NCBI GenBank assembly: GCA_017550655.1
Contig: JAFZOK010000013.1
Coordinates: 434,001 to 498,000, forward strand
Reading direction: 5' to 3'
Source: Bacteroidales bacterium
GTDB taxonomy: Bacteria > Bacteroidota > Bacteroidia > Bacteroidales > UBA932
Length of the DNA stretch: 64,000 nt
In this document: in pieces, positions 54,624 through 63,447 of the stretch
Numbering within the stretch: the stretch's first letter is position 1
How the letters are laid out: every line of letters starts with the position of its first letter
The notes under the pieces: model-generated
Seen by the model: only the letters and a program-made list of their open reading frames with translations
What the model was told of the DNA's origin: nothing
The model's database searches: none
Program-made: the position numbers and the translations under genes

Positions 54624-56237
54624 TTACCTTACAAACACTACGTTGCTTGGGGAGGATTTTTCTTTCCCGTTGATTGCTACAACCACATAGTTTTCCGTCC
54701 TTTCGCTCACAGCGAATTCATTCTCTGTGGTCTGCCCGACCAGTCCGCCTTCCCAGGTTGCGCTGAATCCGTCCGGGGAATACTTTGATATGTAAAGCCT
54801 GTAGATTGCATAGCTCTTTGCGGCAGGGCTTTTCTCCCATCTGATTACCCCGTCCTTTTCCGTTACGGTTACAGGAGCCGGAACAATGTCTGAAGATGTT
54901 CCGAGTTTAGGTATCAGGCTCGGGTACGGGTAAATCTTTTCCTTCAGGCACGCCAGGAAATCAGGACGGAACAGGCTGTGGGTGGTAAACCAGATGTTGC
55001 CCTGCACAAAGTCAGCATCCCGGCATTCATCTACCTGGAGCACATATTCGTCCATAGTGTCGAAACCCTTTTCCTTATAGCGGTAGGCGGCAAGTCCCGG
55101 CAGGCAAGGCACTCCATTCATAATTGGCTCCCAGCTGTCCAGCACCTTCTTGAAATCAGCGATCCTGTGGCCGTGCTGCCAGTAAATCTGCGGGGCAAGG
55201 TAATCTATTGTTCCCTCAGCGATCCAGTACTGCGGATCGGCATAGAGTTTCTGGGTGTTGACAAGCCTTCCTCCCGGACTTACTCCGAAAATGGCATTAG
55301 GCTTGGTGTCGTGGGTTGCCTTATGCATCGCCGCCACAATCTTGTTCACGTTTTCTTCCCTCCATCTTCCAAGCTCCATTCCGTTACCGTATTTCTGATA
55401 CCATGAGGCATCATCCCAGGTTCTTCCGTCGTTGAGCTTGTTTATGGTCTTCTTGAGTGCGGCTATCTCGTCCTTGTCGGTCAGCGTCTTGAGGCTGTCC
55501 CTGAGCTTTGGCAGCACCTCCAGTTTCTCCCTAAGCCCGTCCGGATAGAAGAAATCGTCGATATGCGCTCCGTCCAGGTCGTAGTTGCTCATTACCTCAA
55601 AGATGACATCGTAGAGATACTGGATAACCTCCGGATTTCCCGGGTTCCAGTACATTGTCTTGCCGTATTTGATCACCCTGTCCGGATGCTTGTAGCAAAG
55701 ATGCTTCTTGACCCTGTCGGCATCCACGCCTCCCACTCTCATCGGGTTGAACCATCCGTGAATCTGCATCCCCAGGCTGTGGGCGGTTTCTATCGCGAGC
55801 TTCAGAGGATCATATCCGGGATCTTCTCCCTGCACTCCGGTAAGATTGTGGTCCCAAGGCAGAATCTTTGACTTGTAATAAGCCTCGGAATTGCAGCAGA
55901 GCTGCATAATCACCACATTGCATCCGGTTTCCTTGATCTTTGTGATAACATTCACAAGGGCTCTTTTCTGGGAATCCCTCTGCCTTTCAATCCTGAGTTT
56001 CTGCTCGTGGCGGCTTTCTCCCTTCAAACGGGAAAGGTTTACCCGGAGCTTCTTCGGCCAGTCGGAACCCCTTACGGTAGTAAGCCAGGCTCCCCTGAAC
56101 TCGTGGTTAACCTCCACTCTGTCTGTCAGGGGGTTGAATACTTTGCTTCTATTGTTTTGCTGTGCAGGTGCGCCAGGGCAGAAAATCGCTGAGAATGCCA
56201 ATGCGCAAAGGATTGTTTTCAGGGTTTTGTTTTTCAT
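54624..56237 (-). CDS. GHL10 family glycoside-hydrolase-like protein (paralogue 3)
   Basis: A 537-residue exported protein with signal peptide (cleavage near APAQQ). It repeats all GHL10 blocks of the pair at 8747-11830: FRGAWLTTVRGSDWP, CNVVIMQLCCNSEAYY, GMQIHGWFNPMR, LDGAHIDDFFYPDG, FGVSPGGRL and IDYLAPQIYWQHGH. One difference is that it has an insertion of about 40 residues (EVLPKLRDSLKTLTDKDEIA and following) after HIDDFFYPDG. A fibronectin-like C-terminal region is present. Substrate unknown; it is more distant from the pair but clearly homologous. It abuts pheS without a gap. Confidence 0.9.
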   Translation of the reverse strand: MKNKTLKTILCALAFSAIFCPGAPAQQNNRSKVFNPLTDRVEVNHEFRGAWLTTVRGSDWPKKLRVNLSRLKGESRHEQKLRIERQRDSQKRALVNVITKIKETGCNVVIMQLCCNSEAYYKSKILPWDHNLTGVQGEDPGYDPLKLAIETAHSLGMQIHGWFNPMRVGGVDADRVKKHLCYKHPDRVIKYGKTMYWNPGNPEVIQYLYDVIFEVMSNYDLDGAHIDDFFYPDGLREKLEVLPKLRDSLKTLTDKDEIAALKKTINKLNDGRTWDDASWYQKYGNGMELGRWREENVNKIVAAMHKATHDTKPNAIFGVSPGGRLVNTQKLYADPQYWIAEGTIDYLAPQIYWQHGHRIADFKKVLDSWEPIMNGVPCLPGLAAYRYKEKGFDTMDEYVLQVDECRDADFVQGNIWFTTHSLFRPDFLACLKEKIYPYPSLIPKLGTSSDIVPAPVTVTEKDGVIRWEKSPAAKSYAIYRLYISKYSPDGFSATWEGGLVGQTTENEFAVSERTENYVVVAINGKEKSSPSNVVFVR

Positions 56238-56265
56238 ACCCCAAATTTAGAAAAAACTGAAAATT

Positions 56266-56295
56266 TTTGCAGAACAAAAAAGATTGCTATATTTG
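56266..56295 (+). promoter_or_regulatory. Promoter of the tRNA cluster
   Basis: TTTG (56266-56269), 18-base spacer, TATATTTG (56288-56295). The first tRNA begins 10 bases after the box, so the leader is only a few bases. Confidence 0.72.
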
Positions 56296-56305
56296 CAGTC
56301 CCATT

Positions 56306-56378
56306 GCGGAAATAGCTCAGTTGGTAGAGCACAACCTTGCCAAGGTTGGGGTCGCGGGTCCGAGTCCCGTTTTCCGCT
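56306..56378 (+). tRNA. tRNA-Gly (anticodon GCC)
   Basis: A 73-base cloverleaf: acceptor GCGGAAA/TTTCCGC with discriminator T, D arm with TTGGTAGAG, anticodon loop TTGCCAA on stem CAACC/GGTTG, and T arm ending in GTCCGAGTC. CCA is not encoded. It is the first of three tRNA genes in line. Confidence 0.95.
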
Positions 56379-56438
56379 CGAAGTTTTCATAATTTGAAGT
56401 GCTGCCTCTCTGGAGATATCCCGGGAGGCTTTTAAGAG

Positions 56439-56521
56439 GCCCAGGTGGTGGAATGGTAGACACGCTACTTTGAGGGGGTAGTGCCAGAAATGGTGTGCAG
56501 GTTCGACTCTTGTCCTGGGCA
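56439..56521 (+). tRNA. tRNA-Leu (anticodon GAG)
   Basis: An 83-base class II tRNA: acceptor GCCCAGG/CCTGGGC with discriminator A, anticodon loop TTGAGGG, a variable arm beginning TGCCAGAAATGGTG, and T loop GTTCGACTC. CCA is not encoded. Confidence 0.92.
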
Positions 56522-56523
56522 CG

Positions 56524-56557
56524 AAAGACCGACCAAAAGAAATTGGCCGGTCTTTTT
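56524..56557 (+). terminator. Hairpin with T-run between two tRNA-Leu genes
   Basis: Stem AAAGACCG(a)CCA / TGG(c)CGGTCTTT with loop AAAGAAAT, followed by TT. It lies two bases after the tRNA-Leu(GAG) gene. It may end or partly end transcription, or act in processing, before tRNA-Leu(UAA). Confidence 0.8.
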
Positions 56558-56566
56558 CGAAAAGGA

Positions 56567-56652
56567 GCTCGGGTGGTGAAATTGGTATACACGCCGGACT
56601 TAAAATCCTGTGGACAGAAATGTCCGTACGGGTTCGATTCCCGTCCCGAGCA
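56567..56652 (+). tRNA. tRNA-Leu (anticodon TAA)
   Basis: An 86-base class II tRNA: acceptor GCTCGGG/CCCGAGC with discriminator A, anticodon loop CTTAAAA, a long variable arm GTGGACAGAAATGTCCGTAC, and T loop GGTTCGATTCC. The anticodon stem CCGGA/TCCTG has one C-T mismatch. A tRNA 3' end facing iteron-like repeats at 56715-56742 is a common integration target. Confidence 0.88.
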
Positions 56653-56657
56653 CAAAT

Positions 56658-56708
56658 AAGACTTTGCAAGTTGTCAAAAATCAGACACTTACAAAGTCTT
56701 TATTTTTT
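56658..56708 (+). terminator. Hairpin after the tRNA cluster
   Basis: A 9-bp inverted repeat (AAGACTTTG / CAAAGTCTT) with a 25-base loop is followed by TATTTTTT. It follows the last tRNA by six bases. The 5' arm begins within a few bases of the discriminator. Confidence 0.65.
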
Positions 56709-56774
56709 GCATTCACCAAATTTGGTCACCATTTGGTCACCATTCTCGAAATTGCCCTTATTGGTGACAATCAT
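56700..56774 (-). other. Possible 24-codon remnant
   Basis: On the minus strand a short frame reads MIVTNKGNFENG then DQMVTKFGECKK and stops next to the tRNA-Leu hairpin. It has no convincing homologue by eye. It spans the iteron-like repeats. Its position and orientation resemble the tail of a tyrosine integrase adjacent to a tRNA attachment site, but this is only an idea; there is no full integrase in the window. Confidence 0.2.
56715..56742. repeat. Palindrome plus tandem 11-base repeat downstream of tRNA-Leu
   Basis: The palindrome ACCAAATTTGGT (56715-56726) runs into two head-to-tail copies of TTTGGTCACCA (56721-56731 and 56732-56742). A related TTGGTGAC lies at 56761-56768. Such clusters resemble integrase or regulator binding sites. 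The 136-base region from the tRNA end to the STAS gene holds nothing else that I can support. Confidence 0.7.
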
Positions 56775-56788
56775 TATTTATTGGTATC

Positions 56789-57091
56789 CTATCGGATTTC
56801 AAACAGGTTAAGGAAGCCTGTCATCATAAAGACGCTGCGGATGTCGTCGTTGATGTTCTCGATTATCACCTTGCCCTTTTTGTCTTCAGCCGCTTTCCGG
56901 AGGGTTAGAAAAATCCTGAGGCCGGAACTGGAAATATAGGTCAGGTCCTTGCAGTCGATGATTATGGTCTTGCCTGCCTCTTCCAGGAGCGGATTGATTA
57001 TCGGGTTGGCTTCCTGGGCTGCCGGGGTGTCGAGACGGCCTGTGAAGGCAATGGTAATCTGGCCTTCTTCTTTGGTGACTTTAGTTTTCAT
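56789..57091 (-). CDS. STAS domain anti-anti-sigma factor-like protein
   Basis: A 100-residue STAS-domain protein: QITIAFTGRLDTPAAQEA, TIIIDCKDLTYISSSGLRIFL, KGKVIIENINDDIRSVF, MMTGFLNLFEI. The segment ISSSGL at 53-58 holds the serine equivalent (Ser55) that is phosphorylated by anti-sigma kinases in SpoIIAA/RsbV proteins. It is one base after the SpoIIE/HATPase gene, in the same operon. It is expected to be the phosphorylated switch protein of the module. What it in turn releases cannot be told. Confidence 0.92.
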   Translation of the reverse strand: MKTKVTKEEGQITIAFTGRLDTPAAQEANPIINPLLEEAGKTIIIDCKDLTYISSSGLRIFLTLRKAAEDKKGKVIIENINDDIRSVFMMTGFLNLFEIR

Positions 57092-57092
57092 A

Positions 57093-59285
57093 TTATCTTA
57101 TTCTTTTTGTTAGCGTAAGTATGTTCTTGTTATCCTGGCGTTTGTAGGTGACGCTGTCCATAATCTTCCTGTACATGTGGATACCGAGTCCACCTACAGG
57201 CCGGTCTTCTGCATTCTGGTCAATGTCCACATCCGGAACGGCGGTAGGGTCAAACGGCTTGCCGCTGTCTGTTACGGTGAAGGTTATTTCATCTTCCGTT
57301 GTCTGTGCGCTTATGTCTGCGGTTTTTGAACCGGAATACATTATCACGTTGCTCACGGCCTCTTCCATTGCAAGATTTATGCTGGATTTAAGAGATTCAG
57401 GAATGTCTTTTTCCTCAGCGATTTTGCCGATGAACTTTTCAAGCTCGTGAATCTGGCTGATGTCGTTTGAAAGAGTAATGCTTTGCACTGATTTGATTTT
57501 AGTCTGGTTGTTGAGATAATGGAAGAAGAGCATTGTAAGGTCGTCGCTCTGAGGAGCGTCCTTTACGAATCCGGCAACAGCTTTCTTTACATTGTCCAGA
57601 TGAGTCTGGGCCGGTTTTCTTCCGGAAAGCGTTTCCTTAAGCCTTTGGAGCCCGAACATTCCGTGAGTAGGGTTTTCAGCTTCTGTAATACCGTCTGTAT
57701 AAAGGAAGACGGCATCGTCATAGTGGAGGTCAATTTCCTGGAGGGTGTATTCCTTGTTCCTGATAACACCGAGCGGAAGGTTAGGATCCACAGGCAGTTC
57801 TCCAATCTTGTCCGTAAAGATCAGGGGAGCGTTGTGCCCGGCGTTGCAGTACTGCATCTTTCCGGTCTTGAGGTCCAGTACGCAGCATATGAAGGTGACA
57901 AACATATTGCTTTCGTTCATATCTGACATACTGTTGTTCATAGTGGAGACTATCTCCTTCGGATTGTCATGGTGGGCTGATACGCTGCGGAATAGGCTTC
58001 TTGTCACAGCCATCAGCAAAGAGGCGGGAACGCCCTTTCCGGCCACATCGCCGATGCAGAAGAAGAGTTTCTCGTCCCTGATGAAAAAGTCGTACAGGTC
58101 TCCACTGACTTCCTTTGCCGGAACCAGGGCGGCTGAAAGATCTATGTCTTCCCTCTCCGGGAACGGAGGAAATGTCTTTGGAATCATAGACATCTGGATA
58201 TCGCTGGCAATCTTCAGCTCGCTTTCCATCTTCTCCTTCTTCTCCGATATGTACTTGAATTTGAGCTGGCTTTTGGCTATTGCGCGGAAAATCAGGATTA
58301 ACAGCAGAAGGCCAAGAACCTGAAGCAACCTTATCAGACCGTTCAGTTTCTTCAGGCCGGCAAACATCTCTTTTTCGGGAATGATGATGTTCATGGCCCA
58401 TCCGGTCTTGTCGATTGGAGTATAGTAAACCATGTTCTTGGTGCCGTTGTGCGTTACCTGGATACTGCCGCTTTCTCTGTTCAGCATTGCCCTGTTGAGG
58501 GCGTTGAATGAAGCGGTGTCTTCTACTTTGGTGGCATATTCGTCTATGGTGGTGGTCATTATCAGACTGTCGTCCGGACTGACCATAAGCCTGCCTGTGC
58601 GGCTGACAACCGTACTGAAGGCTCCGGGATATATCTTGATGTCATTTACAAGTGCCTTAAGCCACTCAAGGTCAATGTCCGCGGTAAGCACGGCGGCCGT
58701 TCTCCCCTGGTTGTCTTTAATCGGGACGGAATAGGTGGTCATCAGGATTTCCCCTCCGCCCGTGTCTACGTAAGGTTCAGACCAATATCCCTTGTCCAGT
58801 TCAATAGGTTTTGTAAACCATTCTTGAGACGGGTAGTCGTACTCCTGGGTAGCAAGGGATGTCTCAATGATTTTCCCGTTGGTTATGGCCGTATATGGCG
58901 AATACAGAGGTCTGTCCTTATAATAATTTGGCACTATGGCAATTGTAGACCCGGCGATTATCGGGTTGTTGTTCACGATCAGCTTCGGAATATTGGCAAG
59001 GCTGTCCGGAATCTGAAGGCACCATTGCGCCAGCCAGACATTGTTCCTTACGGCACTTTCCGCCTGGTTCACCACGTTAAGGATTCCGCTTTTGATTGCG
59101 TCAAGCTGGCTTTCGGCCTTGGTTTTGGCTTCGTCCCGGATACCCTTCTGCGCATAATATGCCTGGATAAGGGAAATGGCCCCGAGAATAGCCACGGCAA
59201 CAATGATTAGCAGAAGGCCAGTCCATCTGGTTCTTCTTTTCACCGCTTTCTCCGCAATTTTTTTTGCATGCTCTTTCAGGTTCAT
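57093..59285 (-). CDS. Cache-SpoIIE phosphatase-HATPase fusion sensor
   Basis: A 730-residue protein. Residues 1-345: a membrane anchor (about 22-44), an extracytoplasmic double-Cache-like domain (IIAGSTIAIVPNYY, YWSEPYVDTGGGEILMTTYSVPI) and a second helix (about 318-340). Residues 365-590 are a PP2C/SpoIIE phosphatase: LVPAKEVSGDLYDFFIR, FCIGDVAGKGVPASLLMAV, YCNAGHNAPLIF, VFLYTDGITEAEN and DDLTMLFF with metal-binding Asp. Residues 610-730 are a HATPase_c (RsbW/SpoIIAB-like) domain: INLAMEEAVSNVIMYSG, FTVTDSGKPFDP and GGLGIHMYRKIMD. Thus the kinase-like and phosphatase parts of a partner switch are joined to a sensor in one chain. It overlaps the phosphotransferase gene by four bases. Confidence 0.93.
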   Translation of the reverse strand: MNLKEHAKKIAEKAVKRRTRWTGLLLIIVAVAILGAISLIQAYYAQKGIRDEAKTKAESQLDAIKSGILNVVNQAESAVRNNVWLAQWCLQIPDSLANIPKLIVNNNPIIAGSTIAIVPNYYKDRPLYSPYTAITNGKIIETSLATQEYDYPSQEWFTKPIELDKGYWSEPYVDTGGGEILMTTYSVPIKDNQGRTAAVLTADIDLEWLKALVNDIKIYPGAFSTVVSRTGRLMVSPDDSLIMTTTIDEYATKVEDTASFNALNRAMLNRESGSIQVTHNGTKNMVYYTPIDKTGWAMNIIIPEKEMFAGLKKLNGLIRLLQVLGLLLLILIFRAIAKSQLKFKYISEKKEKMESELKIASDIQMSMIPKTFPPFPEREDIDLSAALVPAKEVSGDLYDFFIRDEKLFFCIGDVAGKGVPASLLMAVTRSLFRSVSAHHDNPKEIVSTMNNSMSDMNESNMFVTFICCVLDLKTGKMQYCNAGHNAPLIFTDKIGELPVDPNLPLGVIRNKEYTLQEIDLHYDDAVFLYTDGITEAENPTHGMFGLQRLKETLSGRKPAQTHLDNVKKAVAGFVKDAPQSDDLTMLFFHYLNNQTKIKSVQSITLSNDISQIHELEKFIGKIAEEKDIPESLKSSINLAMEEAVSNVIMYSGSKTADISAQTTEDEITFTVTDSGKPFDPTAVPDVDIDQNAEDRPVGGLGIHMYRKIMDSVTYKRQDNKNILTLTKRIR

Positions 59286-60115
59286 AATACAGATTTTAGC
59301 GCAGCCCTGAAATTAGGCATAGGGCATTTGGTGTCTCTTTCTATGATAAGTGTCTTGAGGCCGGCATACGGGCGTATCATTTCTTCAGTGTCCTTGAGGC
59401 TGATACCTTCTCCGAAATACAGAGGGGCAAACGTGTCCCAGCTTTTCATTGCCACAGGCTTGGTCATGTGGTAGGTTTCCTGTATGAATTCCTCGTCGCT
59501 GAGGTAGCAGCACAGGTAAACCATTCCTACGTCAAACAGGTGATTGCCGCGGCCGAAATCGCCGAGGTCTATGAAATACCTTTTGCCCTCCGGCGTGAAG
59601 ATTGCATTGGAGAACTGAAGGTCTCCGTGCAGGGCGGTGTTTTCATCCGGAGTGTCAGCGATGAATCTTCCCAGCCTGTCCTTCTCTTTTACCGTGAAGA
59701 ACGGATTCTCTTCCAGAAGGCGGAAGTAGCGGTCCTTCACATTCCCGAATTCGTTTGGGTTGAGCTGTATCTTATGGAGTTCCAGGCACATCTGCGCGAA
59801 TTCGGAGACATATTGAGGAATCTTTTCCGGATTGTCTCCTATTGCTCTGGAATAGGAAGTCTTTCCCTTTATCCTTCTGAAACGGATGCCGTAGCGGCCG
59901 TCTTCCGTTACAACATATTCTCCCGGTTCCGGAGTGGGGATGCCCAGTTCATAGACCTTACGGGCCATGAGCATCTCGTCCAGAGGCTGTGAAATCTTTC
60001 CGGGGAAATAAAGTTTGAGCATCACGGACGTGTCTGTCCTGTGGTCATAACTTTCTCCGTTGGCTCCTCCTCCGGTAAGGACATAATCGCTGAGGGAAAT
60101 CTTTATTGGCTTCAT
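59282..60115 (-). CDS. APH-type phosphotransferase (kinase-like)
   Basis: A 277-residue protein with an aminoglycoside-phosphotransferase/choline-kinase fold: SVMLKLYF with Lys34 for ATP, the Brenner motif LHGDLQFSN with Asp165 and Asn170, and FIDLGDFGRGN with Asp183/Asp186 (DFG). It lacks resistance-specific features and resembles TIGR02172-type kinases of unknown substrate. The start at 60115 overlaps the upstream HD gene by ATGA. It may phosphorylate a small molecule or a protein in the module; sequence does not show which. Confidence 0.87.
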   Translation of the reverse strand: MKPIKISLSDYVLTGGGANGESYDHRTDTSVMLKLYFPGKISQPLDEMLMARKVYELGIPTPEPGEYVVTEDGRYGIRFRRIKGKTSYSRAIGDNPEKIPQYVSEFAQMCLELHKIQLNPNEFGNVKDRYFRLLEENPFFTVKEKDRLGRFIADTPDENTALHGDLQFSNAIFTPEGKRYFIDLGDFGRGNHLFDVGMVYLCCYLSDEEFIQETYHMTKPVAMKSWDTFAPLYFGEGISLKDTEEMIRPYAGLKTLIIERDTKCPMPNFRAALKSVL

Positions 60116-60687
60116 TTGAATACTTGGTTTATAAGTGATTCGAACTCCTTGAAGGCAAACGTGTCCTGAAGTTCCCTCAGAGAATCCGCCAGACCCCTGT
60201 AATGCCATTCGTGGTCTTTCTTGTCAGTTACATGGAATATCTTCCAGAGCCCGTCTCCCTTTTCCGCATAGTCTCTGGCTATGGCTCTCATATTGGAGAG
60301 TTTGTCTCCCAGAGCAACAATCTTCGTGTCGCGGGGAGCCTTTGCAAGCCGCTCTATTGCACCTCTTTTGCGGTCGTGCCAGCTTTCTTCCTCGCTTCTG
60401 CCCTCAATTCCCTTGTCGCTTTCGGCATCAACGATGGATGCTATCCTGTCTCCGAACTCCTCCCTGATCTGGTCTATGGTCACGCCGGTGTCTTCCACGG
60501 TGTCGTGAAGGACAGCCGCGGCAAGAAGCTCCTGGTCTGAAGTCATTGTTGCCACAATCTCCACGGCTTCCATAGGATGCACTATGTACGGGAAACCCTT
60601 ACCCCTTCTTTCTGTTCCGGAATGGGCGTTGACGGCGAATCTTATCGCTCTGTCAAGAAGCTCGGTGTCAAGTGGTTTGTTTGCCAT
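60112..60687 (-). CDS. HD-domain protein, small alarmone hydrolase-like
   Basis: A 191-residue protein matching the Mesh1/SpoT hydrolase domain. Metal residues His37 (YIVHP), His61-Asp62 (AAAVLHDTVEDTG) and Asp128 (LGDKLSNMRA) are present, as are catalytic Glu65-Asp66 and Asn132, so (p)ppGpp hydrolysis is plausible. It contains no synthetase domain. It starts one base after the synthetase-domain gene and overlaps the kinase gene by ATGA. The pair resembles known toxic synthetase with antitoxic hydrolase pairs, or a two-gene form of an alarmone enzyme. Confidence 0.9.
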   Translation of the reverse strand: MANKPLDTELLDRAIRFAVNAHSGTERRGKGFPYIVHPMEAVEIVATMTSDQELLAAAVLHDTVEDTGVTIDQIREEFGDRIASIVDAESDKGIEGRSEEESWHDRKRGAIERLAKAPRDTKIVALGDKLSNMRAIARDYAEKGDGLWKIFHVTDKKDHEWHYRGLADSLRELQDTFAFKEFESLINQVFK

Positions 60688-60688
60688 T

Positions 60689-61798
60689 TTACTGGTTCAT
60701 GAAAGGAAGTTCCTTTGCTTGTTCTACAATCATTTCCGCAACAGTTTCGTTGCTTTTTTCCTTGCCGTTGAGAAGGTCGAAGAAATAGCGCACTCCGCCT
60801 TTTCCCCAGCCCTTCTTCAAGATGTATGCTATGCAGAGGTTCTGAGGGCCGATTGAAGAGGAAACAATATCCAGGTCTGTAAGGCCCATCTGGTAGCAGG
60901 CAATCTGGTAAGCTCCCTCAAAATTGTCTTTTATAATCTTGTGGATATCCCCCAGGGTATTGCAGCCGATGCCTTTGAAGACTGCAAGATACGGCAGCAG
61001 GGAAACCTCCTGGATTTCTGCCTGGTTCACGGCGGCTATCTTCTTGTTTATCTGCCTGAAAGGATCCATATCCAGGAAGCTGCGGAAGGAGTCTCCGTCA
61101 AGCGGAACTTCATCAAGGTTTCCGGAAGCGACCAGTTTGTGGATTTTCCTTCTGTAGTCCGTGAGCTCGGAGCGTATCTTGCTGAACTCTTCGTCTATCA
61201 GTTCCAGCATTCCGGCAAGGCGGCTCATTGAGCGCATGTACCTTTTAGGAATCTCCACTCCGGACTTGTAGCCCGTGTCGTGGTCCAGGTTTGCCCAGGC
61301 GTGCTGGAGCACTGTCCTCATCTGGATCTCGAACTTGTACGGGAAGCCTTCTGCAGTGCAGACATAATGCAGAGAGAGATAGCCGAAACTGTCTATATCG
61401 TGGAGCTTGCGCTTGTCTATGCTGTTTTCCCAGTCCACGTCAAATAACCTTTCGATTGCCGTGGCAACCTTGTCCACATCGTCTATGTAGTAGGTAATCA
61501 GACGCACCCCCAGAATGTCTGTAATATCTGCCAGGCTCTTGTATTTGGTGCCTTTCCTCTCCAGTTTTCCTTCAAGGGAGCTTTCCGTCTTGATTCTGGA
61601 CTCGATGCTGGCCAGATGGATTCCAGCTTCCTTCAAAGTCTGTTTCAGAAGGGCGACAATCCTGGCTTCAGCCTCCTCGAATTCAGGACGCTTGTCTTTG
61701 TATTCCTGCAGGATAGCCAGGCAATGAGAATCTAGATGAGGGGTGTGGGACATTGTCATTCTGTTCAAAAATTCAGTTAATTTTTCAAAGTTAAGCAT
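60689..61798 (-). CDS. RelA/SpoT synthetase-domain protein with C-terminal extension
   Basis: A 369-residue protein. The (p)ppGpp synthetase domain spans about 40-235: RIKTESSLEGKLERKG (68-83), DITDILGVRL with catalytic Asp94, HDIDSFGYLSLHYV (Tyr140), FEIQMRTVLQHAWANLDHDTGYK (Glu157, Gln159, His166). All key residues look intact. There is no HD or TGS domain. Residues 240-369 form an unfamiliar region (KIAAVNQAEIQEVSLLPYLA, CNTLGDIHKIIKDN, GKGGVRYFFDLL) absent from minimal SAS. The start is uncertain: M1 lies at a TAACTTTG box (61786-61793), and M14 (61759) would be the start if that box is the promoter. Confidence 0.9.
   Translation of the reverse strand: MLNFEKLTEFLNRMTMSHTPHLDSHCLAILQEYKDKRPEFEEAEARIVALLKQTLKEAGIHLASIESRIKTESSLEGKLERKGTKYKSLADITDILGVRLITYYIDDVDKVATAIERLFDVDWENSIDKRKLHDIDSFGYLSLHYVCTAEGFPYKFEIQMRTVLQHAWANLDHDTGYKSGVEIPKRYMRSMSRLAGMLELIDEEFSKIRSELTDYRRKIHKLVASGNLDEVPLDGDSFRSFLDMDPFRQINKKIAAVNQAEIQEVSLLPYLAVFKGIGCNTLGDIHKIIKDNFEGAYQIACYQMGLTDLDIVSSSIGPQNLCIAYILKKGWGKGGVRYFFDLLNGKEKSNETVAEMIVEQAKELPFMNQ
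61786..61793 (-). promoter_or_regulatory. Possible -7 box overlapping the synthetase gene start
   Basis: On the minus strand TAACTTTG covers codons 2-4 of the gene as called. If it is the true promoter element the protein begins at M14 or M16. It has no good -33 partner; TTG about 24 bases upstream is too far. Confidence 0.35.
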
Positions 61799-61830
61799 TT
61801 ATTTGATTTAAGGTGTGCAATAAAAACATT

Positions 61831-61838
61831 TATATTTG
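61831..61838 (+). promoter_or_regulatory. -7 box of the secreted protein gene
   Basis: TATATTTG lies 20 bases before the ATG at 61859, divergent from the alarmone operon. No -33 element at the right distance (TTTG at 61802 is 25 bases away). Confidence 0.5.
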
Positions 61839-61858
61839 CAACATAAACAGTTACAGAA

Positions 61859-62389
61859 ATGAAACCATTATCGGTCAAAACTGCCGGCAGACTTGTTCTT
61901 ATAGCCTTTGCCGCATTGTTTGTCAACAATATTGCATCCGCCCAGGACTGGAACGGAAGACGCTACATAACTGAAGATTCCGGCAAGTGCCATGACATTA
62001 TAGTCCAAATGATTACAAGTGATGAATCATTCAAGAGCATGCCAGTGTCGGAAAGGCAGACATTACAGATGTTTTTCTCTATTGCAGAAATGAACATGGC
62101 AATTGTATTCAAGAGCAAGAACCGCTATGTCTCTACGGCAATGTTCAAGATCAACGACAAGATAGCCCAGGCCATTGGAGTGGGAAATGCAGAAATGGAT
62201 AATGCAAGACAGGCTCTGGCCGAGATAAGCAATGATACCAAGATAATAGGAACTTACTCCATTGAAAACGGCATCCTGACCTTAATTTCAAAAGACGGAA
62301 CAAAAGAAACATATAAACTTCTAGACAAAGACGGCAAGAGGATCCAGTCAGAACTTCCGGACAAATTGATCTACAAGCAGGCTAAATGA
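61859..62389 (+). CDS. Exported protein of unknown function
   Basis: A 176-residue protein with a signal peptide (cleavage near ASAQD). The mature part (about 145 residues) has DWNGRRYITEDSGKCHDIIVQMIT, ETLQMFFSIAEMNMAIVFKSKNRYV and DTKIIGTYSIENGILTLISKDGTKETYKL, resembling lipocalin-like domains with an N-terminal helix. The family is not recognised. It overlaps the DUF3667 gene by ATGA and is probably cotranscribed with it. Confidence 0.72.
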   Translation: MKPLSVKTAGRLVLIAFAALFVNNIASAQDWNGRRYITEDSGKCHDIIVQMITSDESFKSMPVSERQTLQMFFSIAEMNMAIVFKSKNRYVSTAMFKINDKIAQAIGVGNAEMDNARQALAEISNDTKIIGTYSIENGILTLISKDGTKETYKLLDKDGKRIQSELPDKLIYKQAK

Positions 62390-63447
62390 ATTATTTCCGC
62401 CGCACCGCACACAAGCTGAGAGAATACTTCATACTCCTTTGGCACGGCATAACCCATCCGAAGGAGAGCAAGCGGTACGACATGAAGGGTATGAACCAAA
62501 CCCATACCTGCAAGAACTGCGGCCTGGAATACAAGGGAAAATTCTGCCCGAGATGCGGCCAGAAAGCCAACATCAGCAGGCTTACGCCAAGGAATCTCCT
62601 TTCCAATACGCTGGAAGTCTGGGACTTCAACAACAAGAGTGTGCCGGGAACCATCCTGGAACTGTTCTACAGGCCAGGCCATTTCATCCGAGATTACCTT
62701 AACGGCCACCGCGCACCGTACTATGCTCCGATTAAACTGCTGTTCCTCCTCTGCGTCATATTCGCGATAGAAATCGGGATAGGTCTTGTCAAGGATAAAA
62801 ACGAGTCCCGCGACAAACTTGCCAAATACGAAAATCCCGCCAACAATAGAATTCCGGCAGACTCTCTGGAGTGGGCCTGGGCAGGCGATGACGACGAGGA
62901 TGATGAGGAGGACTATGAGTTCAAGGGACCGGTAGAATCCATAACTGTTGACACGAGTCTTGATTCTCTTAAACTGAACGGCACGGTGCATACCATAGAT
63001 AGCGAAAAGGCTCAATACATCATCGCCGATTTCATCATATACGGAAAGAAGGCAAAAAAACTCAAAGATGATAACCAGGCCATCTATATCATTATTCTGA
63101 ACATTACCCTGGCCTTTATCTGCTGGCGGGTATTCAGGAAGGAAACAGTTATGGGGCATCTTTCCTACACAGAGCATTTCTTCATACAGATATACATCAG
63201 CTGCCAGATGCTGATTCTGTCAATACTGATTCTTCCGTTCCTGAAGCCAGGGGCAACGTTGCCGGGTTTCGTGCTTCCGGCTTTAATGGTATGGGATTTC
63301 AAGCAGCTGTTCCAGATATCCTGGTGGAGAAGTCTATGGAAAACCATCTGGGTTCTTGTCCTCAATACTTTTATGCTTATCCTTGCGGCAACCTTGCTAT
63401 TCGTGCTGGTGACATATATCCTGGCCGCAAAGTACGGTGCCCTGTAA
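62386..63447 (+). CDS. DUF3667 domain membrane protein
   Basis: A 353-residue protein. The zinc-ribbon CKNCGLEYKGKFCPRCGQ (two CxxC pairs, about 40-57) precedes SRLTPRNLLSNTLEVWDFNNKSVPGTILELFYRPGHFIRDYLNGHRAPYY (the DUF3667 core, in pieces) and at least four membrane segments (about 112-128, 228-245, 262-282, 320-345). An acidic linker (DDDEDDEEDYEF) lies at about 166-180. DUF3667 proteins occur mainly in Bacteroidota and have no known function; context with an unknown secreted protein does not help. Confidence 0.85.
   Translation: MNYFRRTAHKLREYFILLWHGITHPKESKRYDMKGMNQTHTCKNCGLEYKGKFCPRCGQKANISRLTPRNLLSNTLEVWDFNNKSVPGTILELFYRPGHFIRDYLNGHRAPYYAPIKLLFLLCVIFAIEIGIGLVKDKNESRDKLAKYENPANNRIPADSLEWAWAGDDDEDDEEDYEFKGPVESITVDTSLDSLKLNGTVHTIDSEKAQYIIADFIIYGKKAKKLKDDNQAIYIIILNITLAFICWRVFRKETVMGHLSYTEHFFIQIYISCQMLILSILILPFLKPGATLPGFVLPALMVWDFKQLFQISWWRSLWKTIWVLVLNTFMLILAATLLFVLVTYILAAKYGAL

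What the first reader, a model, noticed from the sequence alone, without database searches (positions are those of the whole stretch)
56789..61798. Five-gene alarmone and partner-switch operon
Seen: a RelA/SpoT synthetase-domain protein, an HD alarmone-hydrolase-like protein with all catalytic residues, an APH-type kinase, a Cache-SpoIIE-HATPase membrane fusion and a STAS protein, all on the minus strand with 1-base gaps or 4-base overlaps. Known: partner switching (RsbU/RsbW/RsbV, SpoIIE/AB/AA) and alarmone control are normally separate. Inference: the operon couples an extracytoplasmic signal to (p)ppGpp-type nucleotides through protein phosphorylation, with the APH kinase as an unassigned step. 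Neither a sigma factor nor any usual target of the STAS protein lies beside it, so the output is unknown.
Basis: partly seen in the sequence, partly recalled or inferred. Interest (0 to 1): 0.86.

Follow-up and report, generated by a model that had tools for sequence, protein, structure and literature searches.

The report
Alarmone enzymes under partner-switch control
A five-gene operon in gut Bacteroidales, kept together in many relatives despite gene reshuffling and gene fusions, joins an external sensor with a protein-phosphorylation switch to enzymes that appear to make and destroy a starvation-signal nucleotide; the exact wiring is still untested.

Summary
In detail: five minus-strand genes at 56789-61798, with 1-nt gaps or 4-nt overlaps, encode a RelA/SpoT-type synthetase (SYN), an HD alarmone hydrolase-like protein (HD), an APH-fold kinase near TIGR02172 (APH), a Cache-SpoIIE-HATPase protein (PS) and a STAS protein. 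Catalytic and phosphorylation residues (recalled) are conserved. Of 63 related loci with enough flank, 54 hold all seven domains near SYN; four genes that flank the operon in the window are in none. The set occurs in five family-level groups of the order, in five gene orders. HD is fused to APH in some genomes and STAS to APH in one. PS-STAS pairs also occur away from SYN, and SYN-HD away from PS-STAS, so an input unit seems joined to an output unit. Best reading: an extracytoplasmic ligand sets STAS phosphorylation, and STAS controls the alarmone enzymes, as SiaC controls SiaD (c-di-GMP) in Pseudomonas. A K+/H+ antiporter-type gene lies in the cluster in 40 of 93 loci, usually touching STAS, and may be another output. 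The STAS target, the product nucleotide and APH's substrate are inferred, not shown. New variant of a known kind.

The parts
60689..61798 (-). SYN: RelA/SpoT-type small alarmone synthetase, 369 aa, with a C-terminal region (about residues 215-369) without Pfam match
   Evidence: nearest solved structures are GTP pyrophosphokinases YjbM and YwaC
61259..61600 (-). RelA_SpoT domain of SYN (residues 67-180)
60112..60687 (-). HD: small alarmone hydrolase-like protein (HD_4), 191 aa, recalled catalytic set intact
59282..60115 (-). APH: APH-fold kinase, 277 aa, 216.9 bits to TIGR02172 (cut-off 228.2)
57093..59285 (-). PS: membrane Cache - SpoIIE (PP2C) - HATPase_c_2 fusion, 730 aa
58395..58985 (-). 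PDC/Cache sensor region of PS (residues 101-297)
57522..58076 (-). SpoIIE/PP2C phosphatase domain of PS (residues 404-588)
57105..57470 (-). HATPase_c_2 (anti-sigma / STAS-kinase type) domain of PS (residues 606-727)
56789..57091 (-). STAS-only protein, 100 aa; S55 invariant, at the place of the phosphorylated serine of SpoIIAA (recalled)
   Evidence: the only STAS match in this incomplete genome

Best explanation
The operon is a composite signalling module. Input unit: PS senses an extracytoplasmic ligand by its Cache domain; its PP2C domain dephosphorylates and its HATPase domain phosphorylates the STAS protein on S55. Output unit: SYN makes and HD removes an alarmone, most likely (p)ppGpp or a close relative, with APH as an accessory kinase that works with both STAS and HD. 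The STAS protein, in one phosphorylation state (most likely unphosphorylated), binds an enzyme of the output unit, most likely SYN and otherwise APH, and so sets the balance of synthesis and hydrolysis. This works like SiaABCD, with an alarmone synthetase in the place of the diguanylate cyclase. In many relatives a K+/H+ antiporter-type protein is added as a probable effector. Shown: gene content, intact residues, conserved linkage, fusions, and that the two units also occur apart. Inferred: the activities, the ligand, the product, which protein STAS binds, the direction of control, the role of APH.
For: Linkage: 67 of 93 non-duplicate loci hold all seven domains within 9 kb of SYN, 54 of the 63 with flanks of at least 5 and 6.5 kb; 491 of 496 core hits lie on the strand of SYN; of four genes that flank the operon in the window, two are seen only in L056, the nearest relative, and two in no locus. 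Rearranged but kept: 77 complete sets in five real orders on the SYN tree; 7 changes counted, two of them due only to an extra Cache-PP2C gene (quick tree, 29 of 104 inner branches weak). Family codes f2, f41, f79 and f81 hold the set too. Co-occurrence: APH at E<=1e-40 in 11 of 99 family genomes, all among the 13 with strong SYN. Fusions: HD-APH in L038, L039, L049, L050 and in 9 of the 14 loci; STAS-APH in L261. STAS directly before SYN, within 52 nt, in 10 of 93 loci and next before SYN in 9 of 14 loci. Apart: PS-STAS away from SYN (L256, L257, L259, L260, L262); SYN-HD without PS nearby (L040, L193). Residues intact. Best NCBIfam match of PS is SiaA, 57.8 bits, far below its cut-off of 700. 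SYN is nearer in the PDB to YjbM/YwaC (about 1e-17; RelQ and RelP, recalled) than to 7ztb (9e-4; CapRel, recalled).
Against: No activity, binding or phosphorylation was tested, and no structure could be predicted. Covariation between proteins was uninformative. Parts of the C-terminal region of SYN are conserved in distant relatives without STAS beside them, so it is not specific to STAS control. Nine of 63 well-flanked loci lack a member: HD in 2, APH in 6, STAS in 4. STAS touches the antiporter gene more often than SYN: 34 same-strand pairs within 69 nt. APH copies also stand alone (L265, L266), and G200 has an APH match at 3.2e-33 without strong SYN. The E-value limits of the co-occurrence test were chosen after seeing the lists; at 1e-40, 30 of 99 genomes have a PS match, 17 or more of them other SpoIIE proteins or PS away from SYN. 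Presence is sparse: strong SYN in 13 of 99 genomes of the family, 9 of 393 of the order.
Confidence: 0.55

Rival explanations
1. SYN is a toxic small alarmone synthetase (toxSAS) and HD its antidote, as in FaRel-ATfaRel; the other genes gate the toxin, perhaps for defence.
For: A hydrolase antidote beside a toxSAS is known (PMC11782079, passages). SYN matches a PADLOC candidate defence family, PDC-S33, over residues 27-169 (1.2e-15), and distant relatives sit on phages and on a plasmid with phage genes.
Against: Nearest solved structures are YjbM and YwaC, with 7ztb only at 9e-4. HD is absent near SYN in 2 of 63 well-flanked loci (L093, L126), though an antidote elsewhere in those genomes was not searched for. 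None of the 22 recurring neighbour clusters printed was recognised as defence, but most were not annotated.
Confidence: 0.12
2. Classical partner switch: the HATPase of PS binds a sigma factor or other protein coded elsewhere, STAS only frees it, and the alarmone genes are merely co-expressed.
For: HATPase and STAS resemble RsbW and SpoIIAA/RsbV; PS-STAS pairs exist beside other genes such as an NRPS and transporters.
Against: In PS the HATPase is part of a membrane sensor, and in L049-L051 it is fused to a DAGK-type kinase. No sigma factor was noticed by eye among the clusters; no sigma-factor family search was made. Linkage with SYN survives rearrangement.
Confidence: 0.13
3. The STAS protein mainly controls the antiporter that often lies beside it; the alarmone enzymes answer in parallel. 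(Raised from 0.10 to 0.13 after the recount.)
For: Antiporter-type gene on the strand of SYN within 9 kb in 40 of 93 loci; 34 same-strand pairs with STAS at most 69 nt apart. The one representative scanned passes an NCBIfam potassium/proton antiporter cut-off (481.5 against 355 bits).
Against: Not seen in the window's operon nor in 31 of 63 well-flanked loci; the best homologue in this genome is 34% identical on another contig.
Confidence: 0.13
4. Clustering without direct functional coupling.
For: Operons can gather unrelated genes; the spread shown is within one order.
Against: Flanking genes are not kept, order changes while membership mostly stays, and HD-APH and STAS-APH fusions exist.
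Confidence: 0.05

Closest known systems
SiaABCD of Pseudomonas aeruginosa (PMC8457831, PMC7647112; passages read)
   Same: membrane PP2C phosphatase, kinase, phosphorylatable antagonist-like protein and a nucleotide second-messenger synthase working together; unphosphorylated SiaC activates SiaD
   Different: SiaD is a diguanylate cyclase, not a RelA/SpoT enzyme; phosphatase and kinase are separate proteins; SiaC is phosphorylated on threonine 68; no hydrolase or APH kinase is named in the passages read
HptB-HsbR-HsbA-HsbD (named in PMC7647112, passage)
   Same: antagonist protein promotes a diguanylate cyclase
   Different: c-di-GMP, not an alarmone
SypE-SypA of Vibrio fischeri (PMC8256260, passage)
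   Same: dual serine kinase/phosphatase acting on one STAS protein, which is active unphosphorylated on an unknown target
   Different: biofilm output; the review has no occurrence of ppGpp or alarmone
Tde-SAS and Tde-SAH of Treponema denticola (PMC10434055, abstract and passages)
   Same: separate synthetase with a C-terminal regulatory part, and separate hydrolase
   Different: C-terminal part is TPR; locus tags TDE1711 and TDE1690 are apart; no partner switch in the passages read
FaRel-ATfaRel (PMC11782079, passages)
   Same: SYNTH-domain protein beside a small alarmone hydrolase
   Different: toxin-antitoxin operon; no PP2C, STAS or APH kinase in the passages read

Membership tests
Small alarmone synthetase (RSH family) | RelA_SpoT domain with intact synthetase residues (recalled) | tested here: met
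   69.2 bits, cut-off 27; 13 residues in 107 of 107 rows, R161 in 106
Small alarmone synthetase (RSH family) | makes (p)ppGpp or a related nucleotide | not testable with these tools
   needs an enzyme assay
GTP diphosphokinase YjbM (RelQ) | NCBIfam NF053588 cut-off of 320 bits | tested here: not met
   59.5 bits
Small alarmone hydrolase | HD_4 domain with the R, H, HD, ED, D and N residues (recalled) | tested here: met
   (99 of 99)
TIGR02172 (APH-fold paralogue family) | NCBIfam cut-off 228.2 bits | tested here: inconclusive
   window 216.9, just under; relatives L049 245.1 over, L196 224.5 under
Partner-switch module | PP2C (SpoIIE), HATPase_c_2 and STAS encoded together with catalytic and phosphorylation residues | tested here: met
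Partner-switch module | reversible phosphorylation of STAS that changes its partner | not testable with these tools
   needs biochemistry
SiaABCD | SiaA equivalog NF038263, cut-off 700 bits | tested here: not met
   57.8 bits; not filed as a member, only as working alike
SiaABCD | diguanylate cyclase as output | tested here: not met
   the enzyme gene here is RelA_SpoT
SigB-type Rsb system | sigma factor gene in the locus | tested here: not met
   the three flanking genes scanned are not sigma factors; the rest of the genome was not searched for one
toxSAS toxin-antitoxin | toxic SYNTH protein neutralised by its partner | not testable with these tools
   PDB neighbours are YjbM/YwaC, 7ztb only weak

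The most novel reading that the evidence does not exclude
A stringent-response-type nucleotide is governed by an extracytoplasmic ligand through serine phosphorylation of a STAS protein, instead of by ribosome state or amino-acid starvation; an APH-fold kinase bridges the switch (STAS) and the hydrolase (HD) as a new kind of partner; and a K+/H+ antiporter is one of the effectors. The nucleotide may not be ppGpp.
Probability: 0.4. Interest if true: 0.82.

Novelty: new variant of a known kind. Interest (0 to 1): 0.62.

Why it matters
If true, alarmone control would join c-di-GMP as an output of partner switching, and there would be a small, defined, testable route from an outside signal to an alarmone in uncultured gut Bacteroidales (mostly ruminant MAGs by title). 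It would also give a first functional context to an APH-fold kinase family that is rare in the phylum (TIGR02172 at E<=1e-15 in 1 of 296 genomes, the window's own, and in 0 of 14 control genomes), through its fusions to HD and to STAS.

Tried and rejected
Considered and dropped: (a) a Ruminococcus albus phosphotransferase in a hydrogenase/SpoIIE cluster as kin of APH: only 62.7 bits to TIGR02172. (b) The module outside Bacteroidota: in the plasmid and phage searches the three plasmid places opened for SYN or HD in named records with annotation show no module genes beside them, a fourth record has no annotation, and the rest of the hits were seen as listings only. Other phyla remain open. (c) Distant SYN relatives of Bacteroidota, 12 loci, several cut by contig ends: no HD, APH, PS or STAS hit. 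(d) Mutual-information covariation between the six domains: the first run was dominated by a two-clade split; the second put the positive control HATPase-STAS near the bottom; not used. (e) A TPR or other known domain in the C-terminal part of SYN: no Pfam match (three sequences; filters drop most matches above 0.1). (f) Promoter- and terminator-like sites: not clearly above shuffles in the region (10 against 6.4, 8 against 7.4); the recalled Bacteroides promoter pattern has no match in 56200-62400. (g) Literature: searches returned no paper; some searches returned papers, of which seven were opened for passages; none of the passages describes an alarmone enzyme under partner-switch control. 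Only open-licence papers are held, so this does not prove that nothing is in print.

Weak points of the counts: the 80 named loci are the nearest relatives by design. L094 and L103 were dropped as the same contigs as L044 and L045, and L197 was left out of the residue counts as a lone distant SYN. Gene calls are mechanical ORFs and tblastn hits; loci cut by contig ends are in the 93 but mostly not in the 63. Orders of nine loci in the tree were entered by hand. The HD-APH fusions of f81 come from one genus and are not independent.
Full report
Observation. Pfam confirms RelA_SpoT, HD_4, APH, PDC/Cache plus SpoIIE plus HATPase_c_2, and STAS. Upstream, a divergent gene starts after 60 bases; downstream lie three tRNA genes on the plus strand. 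The genome is about 2.26 Mb in 42 contigs and 88% complete; the nearest named relative is a buffalo omasum Bacteroidales MAG, 97% identical in SYN. Three further RelA_SpoT proteins with open frames of 760, 773 and 710 aa are present, so SYN is an extra enzyme; one STAS match was found.

All parts look active. The residues recalled as catalytic are kept: SYN 13 residues in 107 of 107 rows (R161 106), HD eight in 99 of 99, APH six in 94 or 95 of 95, PP2C 88 to 90 of 90, HATPase 89 of 89, STAS S55 89 of 89. The next STAS residue, S56, is Q in 14 of 89: L038, L039, L049, L050, L052, L192, L194, L198, L199 and L201-L205, that is f81, f79 and one branch of f1.

Is the cluster more than chance? After dropping two duplicates, 67 of 93 hold all seven domains within 9 kb of SYN; of the 63 with enough flank on both sides, 54 do (HD 61, APH 57, PP2C 60, HATPase 60, STAS 59). 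Of four genes that flank the operon in the window, GHL10 and PheS are seen only in L056 and the 176-aa and DUF3667 genes in no locus. 491 of 496 core hits are on the strand of SYN. Over the same 99 genomes of the family, APH at E<=1e-40 is found in 11, all among the 13 with strong SYN (Fisher p 6e-13); PS at E<=1e-150 in 10, of which 9 have SYN. These limits were set after seeing the lists and relatedness is not corrected for. At looser limits G200 has an APH match without strong SYN, and 30 of 99 genomes have some PS-like match.

Membership outlives order. 77 complete sets show five real orders; the tree counts 7 changes among six labels, one label being the common order with an added Cache-PP2C gene (quick tree, 29 of 104 inner branches weak). 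Beyond the window's family code f1, strong SYN is found in f2, f41, f79, f81 and f101 (9 of 393 genomes of the order with the window's own). f2 (L195) has the window's order. f41 (L196) has PS-STAS-SYN-APH-HD. f79 (L194) and 8 of 11 f81 loci have separate PP2C and HATPase genes, STAS, SYN and an HD-APH fusion; of the other three f81 loci, L200 has SYN and HD-APH only, L203 STAS-SYN only with its left end at the contig end, and in L204 one long gene parts PS-STAS from SYN. f101 (L040, L193) has only SYN-HD, in line with a SBP_bac_3/BPD_transp_1 protein and an ABC ATPase. In the f81 family 12 of 31 genomes have SYN at E<=1e-60, one of them a distant form on a short contig without the module.

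Fusions name partners. HD and APH are one protein in L038, L039, L049 and L050 and in 9 of 14 loci. In L261, a genome without strong SYN, an NMT1-type gene and a PS gene are followed by a 404-aa protein with STAS (20-109) and APH (119-308), 119.9 bits to TIGR02172, below its cut-off. APH is thus tied both to the hydrolase and to a switch protein. In L049-L051 the HATPase is fused to a DAGK-type kinase (shown by Pfam for L049; by similarity for the others). APH copies also stand alone in L265 and L266.

The units also live apart. PS-STAS pairs away from SYN sit beside a large gene, an NRPS by Pfam in L262 (and by eye in L256), an NMT1-type binding protein (L257, L259, L260) or a SBP_bac_3/BPD_transp_1 protein (L259). 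SYN-HD without PS nearby is seen in f101. This makes PS-STAS look like an input unit that can be joined to different outputs.

Extra members. A Na_H_Exchanger plus TrkA_C protein, called potassium/proton antiporter by NCBIfam for the one representative scanned, lies on the strand of SYN within 9 kb in 40 of 93 loci, with 34 same-strand pairs next to STAS at most 69 nt apart. A cytidylate-kinase-like gene (14 of 93) and an NMT1-like gene (7 of 93) recur too.

Mechanism. The closest working model in print is SiaABCD: phosphatase SiaA and kinase SiaB set the state of SiaC; unphosphorylated SiaC binds and activates the diguanylate cyclase SiaD (PMC8457831; PMC7647112). The same logic fits here with SYN in the place of SiaD. 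STAS stands directly before SYN, within 52 nt, in 10 of 93 loci (two more have about 1.5 kb between) and next before SYN in 9 of 14 loci; this is suggestive only. The APH fusions make APH a second candidate for the protein that STAS binds, and the antiporter is a third. No step has been shown. The operon fails the SiaA cut-off (57.8 against 700 bits), so it is not filed as a Sia system.

Against a toxin-antitoxin reading: SYN is closest to YjbM and YwaC in the PDB, and HD is absent near SYN in two well-flanked loci (L093, L126), though it was not sought elsewhere in those genomes. For it: a match to a PADLOC candidate family (1.2e-15) and phage-borne distant relatives. It is kept as a rival.

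Limits. Structure prediction was off; covariation gave nothing usable; whole genomes outside Bacteroidota could be reached only by the one pattern scan, whose best 80 hits filled the list. The literature searches found no report of an alarmone enzyme under partner-switch control, in open-licence papers only.

Noticed in passing
L261:1473-2687 (-), G261: STAS-APH fusion protein (404 aa) directly after an NMT1-PS pair, in a genome without strong SYN: a direct link of the APH-fold kinase to partner switching.
   Followed up: partly
L049:5225-6532, L050:8294-9619, L051:7595-8899: DAGK/YegS-type kinase fused to a HATPase_c_2 domain inside the module (Pfam scan for L049 only).
   Followed up: partly
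L256:2209-11998, L262:2-9339: PS-STAS pair directly downstream of a large gene, an NRPS by Pfam in L262 and by eye in L256: a possible other output of the same switch.
   Followed up: no
L040:8248-12464, L193:7679-11895: SYN-HD in one line with a SBP_bac_3/BPD_transp_1 fusion and an ABC ATPase, without partner-switch genes.
   Followed up: partly
L167:210-1894 and L267:6491-10353: A second TIGR02172 kinase (over the cut-off in L167) next to a Y_phosphatase3 gene on a 3956-base contig of this genome; a phosphatase with the same start, by eye, lies between two APH genes in G211. The short contig could be mobile DNA or a contaminant.
   Followed up: no
L168:6757-8715: A second Cache-HAMP-SpoIIE protein in this genome without HATPase or STAS beside it; it might act on the single STAS protein.
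   Followed up: no
L198:3498-5192, L202:11254-13074 and five more f81 loci: Na/Pi symporter with PhoU part (NCBIfam, L198 only) next to the module on the same strand in the f81 lineage.
   Followed up: no
L198:10748-11530, L194:12000-12854, L125 and five more loci: A protein of about 260-285 aa, hydrophobic by eye, that recurs beside the module in 8 loci of different lineages; L198 has no NCBIfam match and its relative in L118 no Pfam match.
   Followed up: no
window 6464, 8682, 23616, 26492, 36572, 40575, 43571: Seven matches of a recalled Bacteroides-type promoter pattern, 0.94 expected from shuffles, none near the operon.
   Followed up: no
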